From: an uncultured Lactobacillus sp.
Lineage (GTDB): Bacteria; Bacillota; Bacilli; Lactobacillales; Lactobacillaceae
Assembly (NCBI GenBank): GCA_946482425.1
Contig: CAMLRO010000007.1
Coordinates: 1-42,402, forward strand
Length of the DNA: 42,402 nucleotides
Direction: 5' to 3'
Shown piece by piece: positions 25,102 through 31,325 of this stretch; the stretch's first letter is position 1; each line of letters starts with the position of its first letter. Position numbers and translations under genes: made by a program. The notes below the pieces were generated by a model. It was not told where the DNA came from. It did no database searches and saw nothing but the letters and a program-made list of their open reading frames with translations.

Positions 25102-25110
25102 TGCTATAGT
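25102..25110 (+). promoter_or_regulatory. Extended -10 promoter of murT
   Basis: TGC followed by TATAGT (25105-25110) is an extended -10. No good -35 is seen 17 bp upstream. The start codon is 29 bp downstream. A further TATAAT on the plus strand near 25039 could contribute. Confidence 0.4.
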
Positions 25111-25139
25111 TGATAGTGATTTTAAAGCGAGGGAAGAAT

Positions 25140-26492
25140 ATGAGTTTTAAGTCTGTAATAGCAAAAAGCGCGGGTAAATCAAGTTACTGGTTTTTACATA
25201 ATGTTTTAAAAGGCGGTACCAGTTTTCCCGGCAAGTTGGCAATGGACCTGGATCCTGAAATTTTAAAAACACTAGCTGAAGGATATGAAACTGTTGTTGT
25301 TACCGGTACAAATGGCAAGACCATGACTACAGCTTTGATCGTGGCTGCACTAAGAGAAAAATACGGCGACGTTTTGACCAATCCATCGGGTTCCAACATG
25401 CAACAAGGAATTGTGACGGCCTTTTTAGCACACAAAAAGAAAAAATCTTCAAGACCAATTGCAGTGTTAGAAGTTGACGAAGCAAATGTCAAAATGGTGA
25501 CGGAACTGCTTCATCCCAGCGTTTTTGTTTTAACCAATATTTTTCGCGACCAAATGGATCGCTATGGTGAAATCTACACTACATACGATAAAATTGTTGA
25601 AGGAATCAAACTGGCACCCGAGACTACTATTATTGCCAATGGTGATGCCAGTATCTTTTCTTCAGTCGACTTACCTAATCCTAAAATTTTTTATGGCTTT
25701 AAACTGCCTAGCGATGAGCCGCAAAATGACAGCAAGGCTCCTGTCAACACGGATGGCATCTTATGCCCTAAGTGCGATCATATCTTACATTATCATGAAC
25801 GTATTTATGCTAACCTGGGAGATTTTTTCTGTCCTAACTGCAATTATCACAGACCCGAATTAACATATTCTGTTAACAAAATTATTGAGCAGTCACCTAA
25901 TAAACTCAAATTTCAAATGGGCAAAAAAGACTACAGCATTAACATTGGCGGCACTTACAATATTTATAATGCTCTAGCTGCCTATTCTGTGGCACGTTAT
26001 TTTGACCTGAGTGAAGAAGAAATTGCTCAGGCTTTTGCTAAAAACAAGCGGATTTTTGGCAGACAAGAATTAATTAAATATGAAGGAAAAGAAATTGATT
26101 TGATTTTAGTTAAAAATCCGGTTGGTCTAGATGAGGTGCTGCACATGCTTAACACTGAAAAAGATGATTATTCATTAGTAGCCTTGCTTAATGCCAACCA
26201 CGCTGACGGCATTGACACTTCCTGGATTTGGGATGGTCAGTTTGAAGACCTCAACCATAAACAAATTAAAAAAATTCTGGTTGGTGGAGAGCGCTGGCAC
26301 GACATGGGCTTTCGTCTGGAGGTTGCCGGTTTTGACCCGGGTAAAATGGTTACCTGCACCGACAATGAGGAAGTAATTGCCAATATTGCTAACTTACCAA
26401 CGAAAAAGGTTTACATTTTGTCTACCTATACTGCTATGCTCTCTTTACGCAAGACTATGGCTGAGAAAAAAATGATTAAGGCTGGGATGTAA
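25140..26492 (+). CDS. murT: Lipid II isoglutaminyl synthase, MurT subunit
   Basis: 450 residues from the ATG at 25140, preceded by GAGGGAAG; an in-frame start at 25110 lies in the promoter and is discounted. Mur-ligase P-loop TGTNGKTMTT is near 54-63, and a four-Cys zinc ribbon (CPKC ... CPNC) is near 205-230. The C-terminal DUF1727 domain follows the KNPVGLDEVL motif. MurT activates the D-Glu of lipid II with ATP, and its partner GatD supplies ammonia from glutamine. gatD usually follows directly, but here a terminator follows and no amidotransferase is in the window. Confidence 0.93.
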   Translation: MSFKSVIAKSAGKSSYWFLHNVLKGGTSFPGKLAMDLDPEILKTLAEGYETVVVTGTNGKTMTTALIVAALREKYGDVLTNPSGSNMQQGIVTAFLAHKKKKSSRPIAVLEVDEANVKMVTELLHPSVFVLTNIFRDQMDRYGEIYTTYDKIVEGIKLAPETTIIANGDASIFSSVDLPNPKIFYGFKLPSDEPQNDSKAPVNTDGILCPKCDHILHYHERIYANLGDFFCPNCNYHRPELTYSVNKIIEQSPNKLKFQMGKKDYSINIGGTYNIYNALAAYSVARYFDLSEEEIAQAFAKNKRIFGRQELIKYEGKEIDLILVKNPVGLDEVLHMLNTEKDDYSLVALLNANHADGIDTSWIWDGQFEDLNHKQIKKILVGGERWHDMGFRLEVAGFDPGKMVTCTDNEEVIANIANLPTKKVYILSTYTAMLSLRKTMAEKKMIKAGM

Positions 26493-26515: not shown

Positions 26516-26557
26516 AACCCGCAAAGTGTGCAATGAAACATTTTGCGGGTTATTTTT
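26516..26557. terminator. Bidirectional terminator after murT
   Basis: Stem AACCCGCAAA (26516-26525) with TTTTGCGGGTT (26541-26551) has T-rich tracts on both sides. On the minus strand it lies just past the stop of the remnant ABC 3' end, so it was probably also the exporter's original terminator. Confidence 0.85.
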
Positions 26558-26610
26558 ATTTTGTATTTTTCGCTAAGTTAAAGATCTTGACGTTGTTTTC
26601 TTGTGCTATT
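26556..26610 (-). pseudogene. Orphan 3' end of the ABC exporter gene, left flank of the cassette
   Basis: In the exporter frame this reads IAQENNVKIFNL then AKNTK and a stop at 26556-26558. The intact gene has the same IAQENNVKIFNL followed by EKNDA. The first 38 bp (26573-26610) match 28569-28606 exactly. It is a stub left where the cassette separated the gene from its former tail. Confidence 0.85.
26573..26610 (-). repeat. 38-bp direct repeat, left copy
   Basis: Identical to 28569-28606 over 38 bp, beginning CTAAGTTAAAG and ending GTGCTATT on the plus strand. Flanking bases diverge at once on both sides. Interpreted as an att-like target duplication. Confidence 0.9.
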
Positions 26611-26647
26611 AGGAAACTAGAATTAAATATCCCCATTTATAGAAGAA

Positions 26648-27574
26648 TCAAAGATGTATTCCCTTTTTTCTTTCATCTAAATATCTGTTCAGCACTTCTA
26701 AATGATGCATAATTGAGTATTCTTTAATTTGTCCCAATGCAGGAGATTTTTTACTAGTATAATCTTTTATTAGAATATCTGCCCCTGAAGATTGATTTTT
26801 CTTTGGTTGGTCAACATACCAATCTGCAAACTTTCTAAGAGCCTCTGATACCTTACCTTTTTGGTCTGAAGTATCATCATTGCTGTTAGAAGTAAAATGT
26901 TGAATTCTGAGCTCATCGTTTTCATCAAAATAAACAATATGTATTGAAACAGCTTTAGGTATCCAGCCCTTTTTATTATATTCTTTTCCAATTATTGAAT
27001 AGTCACTGAAACCAAAGTAACCGGCATTGTCAAAAATCTGATGATCTATTGAAAAGAATTCATCTGGCTTATTTAAGTACCCCGAATTGTTTTTTTGTTT
27101 ATTAAATTTATCATCTAACAAAATAAGTTTTTTTGAATTTTGAAATTTCATTTTAAAAGATGTATTATCCGGTATTATTTTAAGGACTGTTTCATTATCA
27201 ATTTTTGAAACATCTAAATTAAAGATATCTGAATTTAGAAAGAGAGCTGCTGTATCTTCAGAAGACATTTTTTTTAATATATCAATGTCAGTCTGAGATT
27301 TTATGATTCGACCTTTAATAAAGAATCTACTATTTCTTGCATCATTAAACTCTTTTGTATTAATAGGCTTATAGGAACCTACCTGAGGATTCTGGATAGC
27401 CACAAATTTTTTCTTATGTGCTATCATGTACATCACAAAGTTATTAAAATCTGAACTTTTCTCATTAACAGGCTCTATAATTGGCAAAATTTTATCATTA
27501 ATTTTCTTATCATTAATTAGTTTTTTAATTGCTATTAATTCATATCTTTTTCCTCGTAAATATGGAAAATACAT
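26648..27574 (-). CDS. sce7725 family protein (paired with sce7726)
   Basis: 308 residues. The opening MYFPYLRGKRYELIAIKKL and the following ILPIIEP match my memory of the sce7725 family, which resembles the phage T4 beta-protein type. There is no signal peptide or membrane segment. Middle and C-terminal parts are rich in Lys, Asn and Asp and show no catalytic motif that I recognise. It begins 13 bp after the sce7726-like gene on the same strand, so the two form an operon. The family is known as a conserved neighbour of sce7726; its function is not known to me. A role in defence is inference. Confidence 0.65.
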   Translation of the reverse strand: MYFPYLRGKRYELIAIKKLINDKKINDKILPIIEPVNEKSSDFNNFVMYMIAHKKKFVAIQNPQVGSYKPINTKEFNDARNSRFFIKGRIIKSQTDIDILKKMSSEDTAALFLNSDIFNLDVSKIDNETVLKIIPDNTSFKMKFQNSKKLILLDDKFNKQKNNSGYLNKPDEFFSIDHQIFDNAGYFGFSDYSIIGKEYNKKGWIPKAVSIHIVYFDENDELRIQHFTSNSNDDTSDQKGKVSEALRKFADWYVDQPKKNQSSGADILIKDYTSKKSPALGQIKEYSIMHHLEVLNRYLDERKKGIHL

Positions 27575-27587
27575 AATTTAACCTCCC

Positions 27588-28436
27588 TCACTTATATATT
27601 TCCTTTAGTCTCAGATTTAGATCTTCAATTTGTTTTTTTCGATAGTCAGAAAAATAAATTACTTCTCTTAAAGCAGGTGGAAAATTTAATATTAAAGAAT
27701 TATTATTTTTAAATTTATTTATATAGCGGAGTTTAAGCATTATAGCTAGTTCTTCTTGAACTACTTCGATAGGTATCTGTTTAAACATTTTTAAACTATC
27801 TTTAAAATAGTGAAAATCATCTGCTTTCGATAATGTACCTAAATTTTTAAGCAAAATTGATTCATATTCCTTTTTTCTTAAAATTTTAAATATTACTGTA
27901 TGATCAAGAAATTTATTATATTTAGTTGCTTTTCGAATTCTTTTAATAGTATTTCTTTTAGTTAAAACATATAATCCTACATTTTTATTAAGTACGGCTT
28001 TTTCCACATTTTTCAAATGACTTTCATCCATAATGACGTTAACGTAAGAAAATGCTTTATAATAATCTTGAAGTTGTCCTGACAGCCTTTGTAAACTATC
28101 AAGACCACTTTTTATTTCAAAAACTTCAGCTTTACCATTAATGAGAATAAAATCAGCTATTGAATTACTGATTGGGAGCTCTCTAATTGCACTTGTAGTA
28201 TTTAAACTGTGTCTGCCTATTAATAAATTATTCAATAATTGATTCTTATAATAATATTCATTACGATAATTTTTTCTCATAAAATTATAAATTGCGACAA
28301 AACCGTCCTCTTGAGTTTCAATTTGTTTTGAAAGAGAGTACTTATCTATAACTGTTTCATTGATCACACTTTTTCCACTTTTTAAAATTTGATTTATATT
28401 TTTTTTTGTAAAAACACGATTAATTATAGAATCCAT
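27588..28436 (-). CDS. sce7726 family protein, putative PD-(D/E)XK nuclease
   Basis: 282 residues. The core reads SIADFILINGKAEVFEIKSGLDSLQRL: Asp95 then Glu107-Ile-Lys109 fits the D-x(n)-E-x-K pattern of the PD-(D/E)XK nuclease fold, and the run after it (GQLQDYYKAF) is typical of sce7726 proteins as I recall them. The C-terminal half is basic and helical, perhaps a nucleic-acid or partner surface. It is the first gene of the cassette operon, behind AAAGGAGC. Nuclease activity is inferred only from the motif. Confidence 0.68.
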   Translation of the reverse strand: MDSIINRVFTKKNINQILKSGKSVINETVIDKYSLSKQIETQEDGFVAIYNFMRKNYRNEYYYKNQLLNNLLIGRHSLNTTSAIRELPISNSIADFILINGKAEVFEIKSGLDSLQRLSGQLQDYYKAFSYVNVIMDESHLKNVEKAVLNKNVGLYVLTKRNTIKRIRKATKYNKFLDHTVIFKILRKKEYESILLKNLGTLSKADDFHYFKDSLKMFKQIPIEVVQEELAIMLKLRYINKFKNNNSLILNFPPALREVIYFSDYRKKQIEDLNLRLKEIYK

Positions 28437-28456
28437 TATATAGCTCCTTTAAAAAT

Positions 28457-28485
28457 ATTATAAATAGGTATCCTTGCATTCTCAA
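28457..28485 (-). promoter_or_regulatory. Promoter of the sce7726-sce7725 pair
   Basis: Minus strand: -35 TTGAGA (28480-28485), 17-bp spacer, -10 TATAAT (28457-28462). A second TATAAT lies in the 11-bp near-palindrome 28489-28499 (GGTATTATACC), a possible operator. Confidence 0.6.
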
Positions 28486-28518
28486 GTGGTATTATACCTA
28501 ATGCGGATAAATCTAATT

Positions 28519-28553
28519 TTTAAAAGAGTCAATTAAATAATAAGTTAGACTCT
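28519..28553 (-). terminator. Terminator at the exporter's 3' end, carried by the cassette
   Basis: AGAGTC (28525-28530) pairs with GACTCT (28548-28553), extended by AA/TT, and is followed by T-rich sequence on the minus strand. The stem overlaps the exporter stop codon. Confidence 0.6.
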
Positions 28554-30153
28554 ACGCATCGTTTTTTTCTAAGTTAAAGATCTTGACGTTGTTTTCTTGT
28601 GCTATTTTTTCTTTAAAGTTGTGAGCCACTTCAATAACAATTGAAGGCAGTTGGTAAATTAAGCGGTGTACTTCATCAGCATTTTGATGATCCAGGCTAG
28701 AGGTAATTTCATCTAGTAAAAAGATCTTCTTATGACGCAGCAGTCCTCTGGCAACAGCCAGTCTCTGCGCTTGCCCACCTGAAAGATTGCTGCCTTGCTC
28801 TTTAATTTCAAAATCCAGTGCCTTGCTCCCTAACTCTTTGTCTAAACCTACCTTTTTCAGAGAAGCAACTAATTCTTCGTCTGTGAAATTTTGCAAAAGA
28901 GAAAGATTTTCCCGAATCGTTCCTGCAAATAACCAAATATTCTGTGAAATAAACACAAAATCTGAATATTTCAATTTGTGCCCGCCAAATTTCACATCAC
29001 CCATTTCAATTGGAATGTATCCTGCTATGGCATTTAGCAAGGTCGATTTGCCAATACCTGAGGGGCCAGTAATAATCATTTTGTCGTTTTCATTTAGGCT
29101 TAAAGACAGGTTTTTAAAAATTTCCCGGTCACCACGTTTAACCGACAGGTTTTCAACAACCAGTTTATTGTCAGCGACTGGCTGAGCAATTTCTTGATCC
29201 GTTTTTGTTTCAGTCCAAGAAATCTTTCTAATTCCTTCTGTACTTTGAATTTGAGTTTCAAAATTAGTTAGCTGCCGAAAGCCACCAACCACGTGATCCG
29301 CAGTCAGAGTCAAGGTAAGAATCGTACTTACTGTGACCCCTAAGATGCTGTTTTTGGCCATCCAAAGCCCTATGAAAATCGGAGTTAAAGTTATTAATAT
29401 GGCAAATAACCAAGAAATAAACTGCAGAACATATTGGAAAGCATTCAATTGGTAATATCTTTGTTCCTCATCGTGCAAAGAATGATCAAATTTCTGCATA
29501 AATAGTTTTTTAACGCCAAAATTCGTAATTTCAAAACGCCCTGCAAATAAGTCACGCGTAATCGCTAAAAAATTGGAATTAGAATGACTCCACATGTCTG
29601 TCTTAATTTTCATCTTTTCTTTCCCCAAATAACTGGGAAGAAGCGATATAAAGGAAAGAGCCAAATAAATCAGACCTGAAACTGGATTAGTCATTAATAC
29701 TACAACTGTAGAAGATATGACTGTCATCAAACTTTGAAAAAGCAATAAAAGCGGTTCAAAATACTTTTCTTCTATCTGTTTGGAAATACTAGTCATGTTG
29801 TTCAAAACTTCAGATGAATCCAAGTTAGGATTGTTAAATGAACTGGCAAAATTTGCCCTAAAATAAATGCCTTTTATCTTTTCATTTAAAGTCTGAATTG
29901 CTTTTTGCATTAACAGGCTAAATAAGAAAAGAGAAACATAAACGGTTAAATATGATAAAACTGCGGCTATGCCAAATACGATCAAACTGTTTCCATCTTT
30001 GACGTTAAGTCTGGGAATATAACCTAAAATATAGCCATTTAATACTCCTTCAAAAGAACTGGTAACACCAAAGATAAATAAACAAAGTATCATCCAGGGA
30101 TTAAGATTGCTCAAAACCCATTTTAGTGTGACATTTACCTCTTTTTTGTTCAT
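28552..30153 (-). CDS. ABC exporter, membrane and ATPase domains fused
   Basis: 533 residues: six hydrophobic segments in about 1-300, then an ATPase domain with Walker A GPSGIGKST near 362, signature LSGGQAQRLAVARGLL near 456 and Walker B KIFLLDEITSSLD near 478. The H-loop is in EVAHNF. It is a half-transporter that would work as a homodimer; the substrate cannot be told (bacteriocin/peptide or drug export are both possible). It stands alone, preceded by no partner. The last five residues (EKNDA) come from the inserted cassette and replace AKNTK. Confidence 0.9.
   Translation of the reverse strand: MNKKEVNVTLKWVLSNLNPWMILCLFIFGVTSSFEGVLNGYILGYIPRLNVKDGNSLIVFGIAAVLSYLTVYVSLFLFSLLMQKAIQTLNEKIKGIYFRANFASSFNNPNLDSSEVLNNMTSISKQIEEKYFEPLLLLFQSLMTVISSTVVVLMTNPVSGLIYLALSFISLLPSYLGKEKMKIKTDMWSHSNSNFLAITRDLFAGRFEITNFGVKKLFMQKFDHSLHDEEQRYYQLNAFQYVLQFISWLFAILITLTPIFIGLWMAKNSILGVTVSTILTLTLTADHVVGGFRQLTNFETQIQSTEGIRKISWTETKTDQEIAQPVADNKLVVENLSVKRGDREIFKNLSLSLNENDKMIITGPSGIGKSTLLNAIAGYIPIEMGDVKFGGHKLKYSDFVFISQNIWLFAGTIRENLSLLQNFTDEELVASLKKVGLDKELGSKALDFEIKEQGSNLSGGQAQRLAVARGLLRHKKIFLLDEITSSLDHQNADEVHRLIYQLPSIVIEVAHNFKEKIAQENNVKIFNLEKNDA
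28569..28606 (-). repeat. 38-bp direct repeat, right copy
   Basis: Exact match to 26573-26610. It lies inside the coding end of the intact ABC exporter. Confidence 0.9.
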
Positions 30154-30334
30154 GCTTTTACCCCATATTAGCTTAAGTTATTTAGTTTGTAATTATAGCA
30201 AGATTAAAAACAAATGACTATCAGATGTGAGTAAGAGGTCGATTTTTTCAGCTAAGTGGTTTAAAAAAGGATGTGGTACATATAACATTTGCTAGATCTG
30301 ATGGATGTTTTGTGGATTTTAAAAGCTAAAGTTA

Positions 30335-30367
30335 CAAAAAAACGATAAATTCAAATTAAAATTTATC
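30335..30367 (-). terminator. Terminator of the BspA/SLAP surface gene
   Basis: GATAAATT (30344-30351) pairs with AATTTATC (30360-30367), followed on the minus strand by G and seven T. It lies about 70 bp past the stop at 30440. Confidence 0.7.
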
Positions 30368-30439
30368 ATTTTATTAGTATAAGAAAATTAAATTTTTTAA
30401 ATAACTATATTGAAGTTAGACTCAAGAAGTGTGGTTTTA

Positions 30440-31114
30440 TTAAAAGTTTGCTTTCTTAACAAATCTATTTTTATCTACAATGTAATATTTCTTATTCTTA
30501 ATTATGACGGGATCACCATATGTTTTTACAGTTGAACCTTTTTTCAAAACTTTCTTATTCTTGCGATCACCATACTGATTATAAAGGTAGGCATTATGTT
30601 TTAATTTACGGACAACAGGATCAACATTACCGGCAGCAATGTAATATTTTATGTTGCTATTGCCCTTATCATTTAGAACGTAAAAATTGCGTCCGCTGAT
30701 AGTCGTTTTACCACAGGTCTTTAGTTGCGAACCAATTTTTAAAACAATTTGGTTTGCACGAGTACCAGTATTGTCATAAAGATAAGCATTGTGCATCAAC
30801 AATACAGTCTTTTCACTGCTTGAATCCTTATTATTGTTTTCGTCTTTGTCCTTATTTTCATCATTATTCTCCACTGGATTTGTCGGCTCAACCGGAACGG
30901 GATTAGGAGCAGGATTATTATTGTCGGTATCATCTGGTGGTGTTACTAGTTTCTTCCAAGTATAAGCACCCGGCTTGAGAGATCCATCTTGACTTTTTTG
31001 AATTAATTCAGCAGTAGTTAGTTGAGGCTCGTTATTATTATTGGTTAATCGCCATTTGTTGATAAAGTTCTCTTTATTCGGTGTTTTTTCAGGATTTGGT
31101 TGCCCCAAAGCCAC
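30440..31114 (-). CDS. C-terminal fragment: two SLAP domains
   Basis: 224 residues, with no credible ribosome site at its first Met. A Pro/Asn/Asp/Glu-rich linker (about 60-102) is followed by two related units, each with HNAYLYxxxGxR and then a KxGS-like turn and a (N/K)(F/Y)Y(V/I) strand. These are SLAP (S-layer protein) repeats that attach proteins to lactobacillar cell walls. It is probably not translated separately. Confidence 0.7.
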   Translation of the reverse strand: MALGQPNPEKTPNKENFINKWRLTNNNNEPQLTTAELIQKSQDGSLKPGAYTWKKLVTPPDDTDNNNPAPNPVPVEPTNPVENNDENKDKDENNNKDSSSEKTVLLMHNAYLYDNTGTRANQIVLKIGSQLKTCGKTTISGRNFYVLNDKGNSNIKYYIAAGNVDPVVRKLKHNAYLYNQYGDRKNKKVLKKGSTVKTYGDPVIIKNKKYYIVDKNRFVKKANF

Positions 31115-31325
31115 ATCGGTACTTAATTTTGTTTTTGAGCCTAAAACTAAAGTAGTTATACCTGGTGCGTTTTGTACACAACCTTACCGTTCACAATAGC
31201 CCCCACTGGTAGAGTCAAATCATATGCCAGCATATTTTTTATATTGGGACTTTGGGCAGTATCAAACGAACTCAAATCCAAGTAGTTGAGGCTAATCAAA
31301 TAACTAAGCATATCGTCCATGTCAG

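What the first reader, a model, noticed from the sequence alone, without database searches (positions are those of the whole stretch)
26573..28606. Two-gene sce7726/sce7725 cassette bracketed by an exact 38-bp duplication of an ABC exporter's 3' end
Seen directly: 38 bp at 26573-26610 equal 28569-28606. The left copy is a stub of the exporter's C-terminus (IFNL-AKNTK) beside the terminator shared with murT; the right copy is in the intact exporter, now ending IFNL-EKNDA. Between them are only two co-directional genes and one promoter. This is the footprint of integration at a gene's 3' end with repair of the host frame, but with no recombinase. The gene pair is a conserved family of unknown role, one member with a PD-(D/E)XK-like motif (Asp95, Glu107-x-Lys109). 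A minimal mobile defence cassette is the inference.
Basis: partly seen in the sequence, partly recalled or inferred. Interest (0 to 1): 0.8.

Follow-up and report, generated by a model that had tools for sequence, protein, structure and literature searches.

The report
Defence-type cassette that lost its toxin
A two-gene Lactobacillus cassette set into the end of a transporter gene is probably a toxin-less version of a widespread three-gene set that resembles a known anti-phage system and normally ends in an NAD-consuming type of toxin gene; the short repeat around it is better explained by a one-off faulty DNA join than by a dedicated integration machinery.

Summary
The 38-bp exact repeat (26573-26610 = 28569-28606), the exporter stub and the two-gene cassette are real. 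Of 75 Lactobacillus genomes, seven show the empty site with one copy and two (L. laiwuensis F551-2 and a MAG) carry a related cassette at the same base. Those two have a third gene, a RES-domain protein (NAD-consuming type), and no left 38-bp copy: the insertion is clean. RES lies directly downstream of intact sce7725 in 23 of 23 other loci examined. So the window most likely holds a toxin-less remnant, and its repeat is not the general footprint of insertion; one illegitimate join could make both the repeat and the loss of RES (inferred). sce7726 is the family of phage P4 CII, part of the anti-phage system gop-beta-cII; sce7725 is a distant Beta-like protein (N-terminal match only). The cassette is 99% identical in two carriers whose murT genes are 93.6% identical, so it has moved between species; how is not shown. 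The interesting, untested inference: RES as effector of a CII/Beta-type defence system.

The parts
25110..26492 (+). murT (left host flank, convergent with exporter and cassette)
   Evidence: PF08353 127.6 bits, PF08245 55.6 bits
26516..26551 (.). terminator-like hairpin after murT; in empty sites the exporter runs straight into it from the other side
   Evidence: 14-pair stem with T tail; empty sites
26556..26610 (-). stub of the host exporter 3' end (native C-terminus AKNTK and stop), holding the left 38-bp copy at 26573-26610
   Evidence: 26566-26610 identical to the empty site of G020/L032
26611..26663 (.). stretch of unknown origin (it holds the last codons of sce7725) where carriers have the RES gene; its likeness to RES is not significant
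26648..27574 (-). sce7725 family protein, 308 aa; distant Beta-like protein with a predicted TIM-barrel-like fold; putative antitoxin or partner
   Evidence: NF033831 278.7 bits; PF14350 18.6 bits, below its cut-off of 27; model pLDDT 91.9 and fold matches; hhalign to a Beta profile E 5.9e-5 over 58 N-terminal columns
27588..28436 (-). sce7726 family protein, 282 aa; same family as P4 CII; PD-(D/E)XK-like residues D95, E107, K109
   Evidence: NF033832 168.8 bits; PADLOC 'cll' 73.5 bits, a model that P4 CII matches at 375.9 bits; model pLDDT 94.4 and fold matches
28437..28568 (-). right end of the cassette: promoter-like site (28485-28457) and the replacement last codons EKNDA of the exporter
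   Evidence: promoter match 11 of 12, total matches not above shuffles; right junction at the same base as in the carriers
28552..30153 (-). ABC exporter, 533 aa (right host flank), holding the right 38-bp copy at 28569-28606
   Evidence: PF00005 84.6 bits, PF00664 56.5 bits

Best explanation
The window carries a reduced copy of a three-gene cassette, sce7726 - sce7725 - RES, that sits at the 3' end of an ABC exporter gene in some Lactobacillus species. The full operon most likely works like the P4 gop-beta-cII system: a toxin (here a RES-type NAD+ consumer in place of Gop) is held in check by the Beta-like sce7725, with the CII-like, PD-(D/E)XK-like sce7726 as sensor, nucleic-acid-acting part or both; phage infection frees RES, NAD falls and the infected cell stops (inferred). 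In the window the RES gene is gone and the two partner genes remain, probably as a decaying or immunity-only remnant. The 38-bp duplication most likely arose together with the loss of RES: recombination between cassette-bearing DNA and an empty-site chromosome, homologous on one side and illegitimate on the other (cassette end just past sce7725 joined to the exporter 38 bp inside the insertion point). It is then not an attachment-site repeat. Shown: the three-gene norm in the loci examined, empty sites, clean insertion in the carriers, movement between species, family relations. Inferred: function, order of events, a single event.
For: Empty site with one repeat copy in 7 genomes and occupied site in 2, of 75 searched. 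RES (PF08808, 44.8 and 44.9 bits, cut-off 23.2) overlaps the end of sce7725 in both carriers. RES directly downstream of intact sce7725 in 23 of 23 loci: 11 of 11 Lactobacillaceae, 2 of 2 carriers, 7 of 7 from a phylum sample, 3 of 3 from the plasmid and phage collections; in three of these the RES frame is truncated (L059), split (L087) or cut by the contig end (L066). R172, R174, Y211, E222 and S316 (L028 numbering) invariant in the 19 of 23 RES proteins that I aligned. P4 CII matches NF033832 at 151.4 bits; hhalign of the sce7726 alignment to P4 CII E 2.5e-11. gop-beta-cII protects against lambda and P1, and Gop is toxic without Beta (PMC9122126, passages). The carriers have no left copy and clean ends. 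The left stub is identical to an empty-site relative up to 26610, where the join lies. The terminus GIHL of the window's sce7725, found where carriers have the RES start, also occurs in a separate ENA protein cluster that differs at two residues (P0001).
Against: The stretch 26611-26665 shows no significant likeness to RES in open tests (27 of 400 shuffles and 28 of 400 window pieces reach the protein score; 46 of 1000 shuffles and 40 of 1000 window pieces the DNA score, and the antisense RES strand scores higher, 18 against 17); a test restricted to the N-terminus after the fact gave 7 of 2000 shuffles and 24 of 2000 window pieces. So no trace of the lost gene is proven. sce7725 and sce7726 are intact, with dN/dS to the carrier of 0.18 and 0.13, which fits continued use as well as recent loss. 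sce7725 resembles Beta only at its N-terminus. No defence activity was tested for any RES version; a 2024 paper says that no RES toxin-antitoxin system has been implicated in immunity (PMC11535050, passages).
Confidence: 0.6

Rival explanations
1. Site-specific integration at the exporter 3' end by a recombinase acting in trans: the 38-bp repeat is attL/attR, and the carriers lost their left copy later.
For: Exact 38-bp repeat in the window; the same right junction in window and carriers although the cassette genes differ by 13-20%; insertion at a gene's 3' end with the frame kept; carriers about 99% alike in the cassette with a host difference 5-6 bp outside the left end and about 20 bp outside the right end.
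Against: The carriers have no left copy and both their ends fall within 3 bp of one host position, a coincidence under later loss. No recombinase in the cassette. The repeat core is found once per genome in 7 of 75 genomes, only at exporter loci, and in no viral contig by exact match. The repeat abuts the place where RES is missing.
Confidence: 0.17
2. The two-gene form is a working unit in its own right (a CII-type protein with its Beta-like partner) that never had RES, or does without it.
For: Both genes intact with low dN/dS against the carrier; motif residues kept; stand-alone sce7726-like genes exist; Beta-CII pairs recur in all 11 genomes with a PF14350 match.
Against: RES follows intact sce7725 in 23 of 23 other loci examined; the window's sce7725 runs on into extra codons where carriers have the RES start.
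Confidence: 0.15
3. Assembly artefact or chance repeat.
For: The window's own assembly is not held, so the junctions could not be checked in reads.
Against: A separate ENA protein cluster with two different residues ends in the same unusual GIHL terminus (P0001); its contigs are short (longest 1653 bases), so the repeat itself was not seen there. 38 bp against at most 16 in 300 simulations.
Confidence: 0.03

Closest known systems
gop-beta-cII anti-phage system of satellite P4 (Rousset et al. 2022, PMC9122126, passages)
   Same: sce7726 and P4 CII are one family by curated profile (P4 CII 151.4 bits to NF033832; the P4 record NC_001609 itself names it sce7726 family protein); a Beta-like partner; a third gene that is or looks like a toxin.
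   Different: The toxin-type gene is RES, not Gop, and is missing in the window; sce7725 matches Beta only N-terminally; genes are co-directional, whereas P4 has beta and cII convergent, as do the PF14350 Beta loci seen.
RES-Xre toxin-antitoxin modules (NatT/NatR, MbcT, ParT)
   Same: RES domain with conserved Arg, Glu and Ser in the full cassette (the R-E-S residues are described as the putative catalytic triad in PMC12457610, passages).
   Different: Partners are sce7725 and sce7726, not an Xre/MbcA/ParS antitoxin; an N-terminal part weakly matches HEPN_RES_NTD1, below its cut-off, in 4 of the 5 RES proteins scanned.
PD-lambda-2 (PMC9519451, passages)
   Same: Its third component is related to a P4 phage antitoxin; P4 Beta matches its PADLOC models at 49.5 and 31.9 bits, sce7725 at only 13.8.
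   Different: HigB-like and Xre-peptidase components instead of RES and CII.
CIME-type remnants (elements flanked by att sites without integrase; recalled, papers only seen as a listing)
   Same: Cargo between direct repeats at a gene's 3' end, no recombinase.
   Different: The two sister insertions at the same site have no repeat; no larger element with this repeat was found.

Membership tests
sce7726 / CII family (NF033832) | Profile match over the curated cut-off | tested here: met
   168.8 bits against 70; P4 CII 151.4 bits
sce7725 family (NF033831) | Profile match over the curated cut-off | tested here: met
   278.7 bits against 60
gop-beta-cII system | CII homologue | tested here: met
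   PADLOC cll 73.5 bits; hhalign E 2.5e-11
gop-beta-cII system | Beta homologue | tested here: inconclusive
   PF14350 18.6 bits, cut-off 27; 9 of 50 aligned relatives match it at E 0.01 or better; hhalign to single P4 Beta probability 6.5, to a Beta profile E 5.9e-5, probability 65, 58 columns
gop-beta-cII system | Gop toxin gene next to beta | tested here: not met
   No third gene in the window; RES in the carriers and no PADLOC match for it
gop-beta-cII system | beta and cII convergent | tested here: not met
   co-directional in window and carriers; convergent in P4
gop-beta-cII system | Protection from phage | not testable with these tools
   needs a phage challenge
PD-(D/E)XK superfamily (sce7726) | D...E-x-K residues | tested here: met
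   D95, E107, K109 invariant in 46 of 46
PD-(D/E)XK superfamily (sce7726) | PD-(D/E)XK fold | tested here: inconclusive
Integrative element with att repeats | Direct repeat at both ends in independent insertions | tested here: not met
   absent in both other occupied sites
Integrative element with att repeats | Own recombinase | tested here: not met
   only sce7726 and sce7725 (plus RES in carriers) between the ends

The most novel reading that the evidence does not exclude
CII (sce7726) plus a Beta-like protein is a conserved chassis that takes interchangeable toxins (Gop in P4, RES here), and the widespread sce7726-sce7725-RES operon is an anti-phage system in which a RES NAD+ consumer is the effector. 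In the window the toxin has been discarded and the pair is kept as an immunity remnant against incoming RES cassettes.
Probability: 0.4. Interest if true: 0.65.

Novelty: new variant of a known kind. Interest (0 to 1): 0.5.

Why it matters
RES toxins are common, but a 2024 study states that none of the RES toxin-antitoxin systems has been implicated in immunity and that known NAD-targeting immunity uses TIR and SIR2 (PMC11535050, passages). A conserved operon that joins RES to the CII family of a proven anti-phage system gives a direct test. It also gives two families of unknown role, sce7725 and sce7726, a working hypothesis, and shows how a defence-type cassette can move between species and then lose its toxin while its partner genes stay.

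Tried and rejected
38-bp repeat as att core: rejected as the general explanation, because the carriers lack the left copy and no other cargo is flanked by it in 75 genomes or in viral contigs by exact match of a 29-base core.

Window 26611-26665 as RES remnant: first looked convincing (REYIFD shared with L058) but failed in the open tests; the restricted test (7 of 2000 shuffles, 24 of 2000 window pieces) was chosen after seeing the match and is not used as proof. Its origin stays open.

sce7725 as a full-length P4 Beta homologue: hhalign to the single P4 sequence gave probability 6.5; a profile of P4 Beta plus 9 of the 12 PF14350 loci (three partial ones left out) gave E 5.9e-5 over 58 columns only, with controls at E 0.79 and 0.32. 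Fold searches gave a TIM-barrel-like fold (PDB; no Foldseek match at E 0.001 or better) and one good viral match of unknown function, a Gordonia phage Powerball protein (E 4.1e-9).

A second empty site, for the G022 cassette: the left flank found only itself strongly among 75 genomes, the right flank one 87% match; not pursued.

RES by sequence against solved structures: no RES entry found by phmmer. Viral contigs: no relative of sce7725 confirmed. Five genes upstream of Beta in three Proteobacteria plasmids were scanned: no toxin domain stood out in Pfam, and one near Beta in Sinorhizobium matched HamB models weakly; one further upstream in Neorhizobium is a reverse transcriptase.

Not counted in the 23 of 23: L092 and L098 (sce7725 broken), L063, L069-L073, L093, L095, L097 (sce7726-like gene, no sce7725 detected), and the sub-threshold match in G414 (not fetched). 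Of the 27 plasmid records with a hit I opened six (H14, H17, H21, H23, H27, H28), and of the 13 phage-collection records one besides P4 (H1); these were chosen by hand.
Full report
THE OBSERVATION. The repeat is exact over 38 bp (26573-26610 and 28569-28606) and 96% over 45 bp; simulations of the same composition never passed 16 bp in 300 trials. The left copy belongs to a stub of the exporter's 3' end next to the murT terminator-like hairpin; the right copy is in the intact exporter. Between them lie sce7726 and sce7725, both over curated cut-offs.

EMPTY AND OCCUPIED SITES. A search of 75 Lactobacillus genomes with the exporter DNA gave 18 with a match, of which nine are near relatives. In seven (G001, G020, G028, G030, G038, G065, G066) the exporter runs straight into the murT terminator with one copy of the repeat region. 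They include three at about 87% identity, so the empty state is most likely ancestral. In the same 75 genomes the sce7726 profile matches four: G031, G064, G022 and G069.

THE OCCUPIED SITES DIFFER FROM THE WINDOW. Both carry a third gene, 358 aa, whose start overlaps the stop of sce7725, with a RES domain (44.8 and 44.9 bits, cut-off 23.2). Both lack the left 38-bp copy: the murT terminator passes directly into cassette DNA. Their left and right ends fall within 3 bp of one host position, so the insertion is clean. The right end, with the replacement codons EKNDA, is at the same base in carriers and window. Of 38 sites on the right where carrier L028 differs from four near empty relatives, the window has the carrier state at the 8 from 28552 to 28568 and the empty-site state at 29 of the 30 from 28572 on, the exception being 29413. 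On the left, where the same four relatives agree with each other, the window has the empty-site state at 69 of 81 sites that differ from L028 and at 70 of 75 that differ from L029, with no carrier state after 26039; up to 26610 it is identical to the empty site of G020 over the last 45 bases.

RES IS THE NORM. I fetched loci for 17 of the 18 sce7726 matches in 397 Lactobacillaceae genomes, all 8 sce7725 matches in 398 genomes of the phylum, and seven records from the plasmid and phage collections. Wherever sce7725 is intact, RES is the next gene downstream: 11 of 11, 7 of 7 and 3 of 3, plus the two carriers, 23 of 23 in all. RES is truncated in L059, split in two frames in L087 and cut by the contig end in L066. 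sce7726-like genes without sce7725 occur too (L063, L069-L073, L093, L095, L097). The window is the only intact pair without RES among the loci that I examined. Its sce7725 terminus is not an oddity of one assembly: P0001, an ENA cluster that differs at two residues, has the same terminus, though its contigs are too short to show the repeat.

MOVEMENT. Carriers L028 and L029 are 99.0-99.6% identical in the three genes and 93.6% in murT; I count 21 differences over about 3,008 bp of cassette in the list. The nearest host differences lie 5-6 bp outside the left end and about 20 bp outside the right end. Between window and L028 the reverse holds: dS 0.56 (sce7726) and 0.84 (sce7725) against 0.13 (exporter) and 0.27 (murT). 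So the cassette's history is uncoupled from that of its flanks, which points to horizontal exchange. Ordinary homologous recombination in flanks this similar would suffice; a site-specific route is not excluded.

HOW THE REPEAT AROSE (INFERRED). The window needs three things explained: a host-type stub, a missing RES gene, and a carrier-type right end. One recombination between cassette-bearing DNA and an empty-site chromosome, homologous on one side and illegitimate on the other, gives all three; the repeat length is then just the distance from the insertion point to the illegitimate join. The 53 bp between join and cassette are unexplained: their likeness to RES is within chance.

FUNCTION (INFERRED). 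gop-beta-cII protects E. coli from lambda and P1, and Gop is toxic without Beta (PMC9122126, passages). By analogy RES is the toxin, sce7725 its restraint and sce7726 the sensor or nucleic-acid-acting part. In the window the toxin is gone. Low dN/dS (0.18 and 0.13 against the carrier) fits recent loss or a kept function such as immunity to incoming RES cassettes.

LITERATURE. 'sce7726' is in 4 and 'sce7725' in 3 papers of the library, 5 different papers; I read passages in two. One reports a statistical association of an sce7725 family protein with aminoglycoside resistance in E. coli proteomes and finds no earlier link (PMC8203672); the other only lists the name (PMC13414232). The other three I saw as a listing. 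'gop-beta-cII' is in one paper, and the spelling 'Gop Beta Cll' in one other, seen as a listing. A search for RES domain with anti-phage, abortive infection, NADase and Xre listed 6 papers, of which I read passages of two. A wider search found 134 papers, 15 listed, of which I read passages of three. I found no report of this operon as a defence system within these searches, which do not cover most subscription journals.

VERDICT. Observation confirmed; the integration-footprint reading is not supported; the defence-cassette reading is partly supported, with the correction that the window most likely holds a toxin-less form of a wider three-gene system.

Noticed in passing
L029:8620-9110 (G031, L. 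laiwuensis), opposite window 28552-31248: In this carrier only about the last 280 bp of the exporter gene match; the exporter's remainder, up to about window position 31128, is missing there, while the cassette is intact.
   Followed up: partly
window 30268-30432; L028:10579-13680 and the same gap in L030, L032, L033: About 3.1 kb of extra DNA lies just beyond the exporter in four relatives; in L028 it holds two long open frames that look to me like an antiterminator and a PTS permease (reading of the translation, no family search). It is absent from the window and from G001/L031.
   Followed up: no
L069:5989-6567, L070:5983-6552, L071:5869-6459, L072:5974-6552: Short (about 190 aa) distant sce7726/CII-like proteins without sce7725 lie among many small genes that look prophage-like to me; tblastn also finds CII-like stretches in Lactobacillus plantarum phages Iacchus, Bromius and Dionysus. 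Their role is open.
   Followed up: no
L107-L118: PF14350 Beta genes in 11 genomes of the phylum all have a CII homologue beside them; in the nine loci with a complete Beta frame it is on the opposite strand with overlapping 3' ends, as an arrangement like that of P4. The toxin of these loci was not identified.
   Followed up: partly
L099 (Salmonella enterica subsp. houtenae AGRM01000005.1): The three-gene sce7726-sce7725-RES set lies beside genes annotated as a phage-type integrase and an integrating conjugative element protein, so elsewhere it may travel on conventional mobile elements.
   Followed up: no
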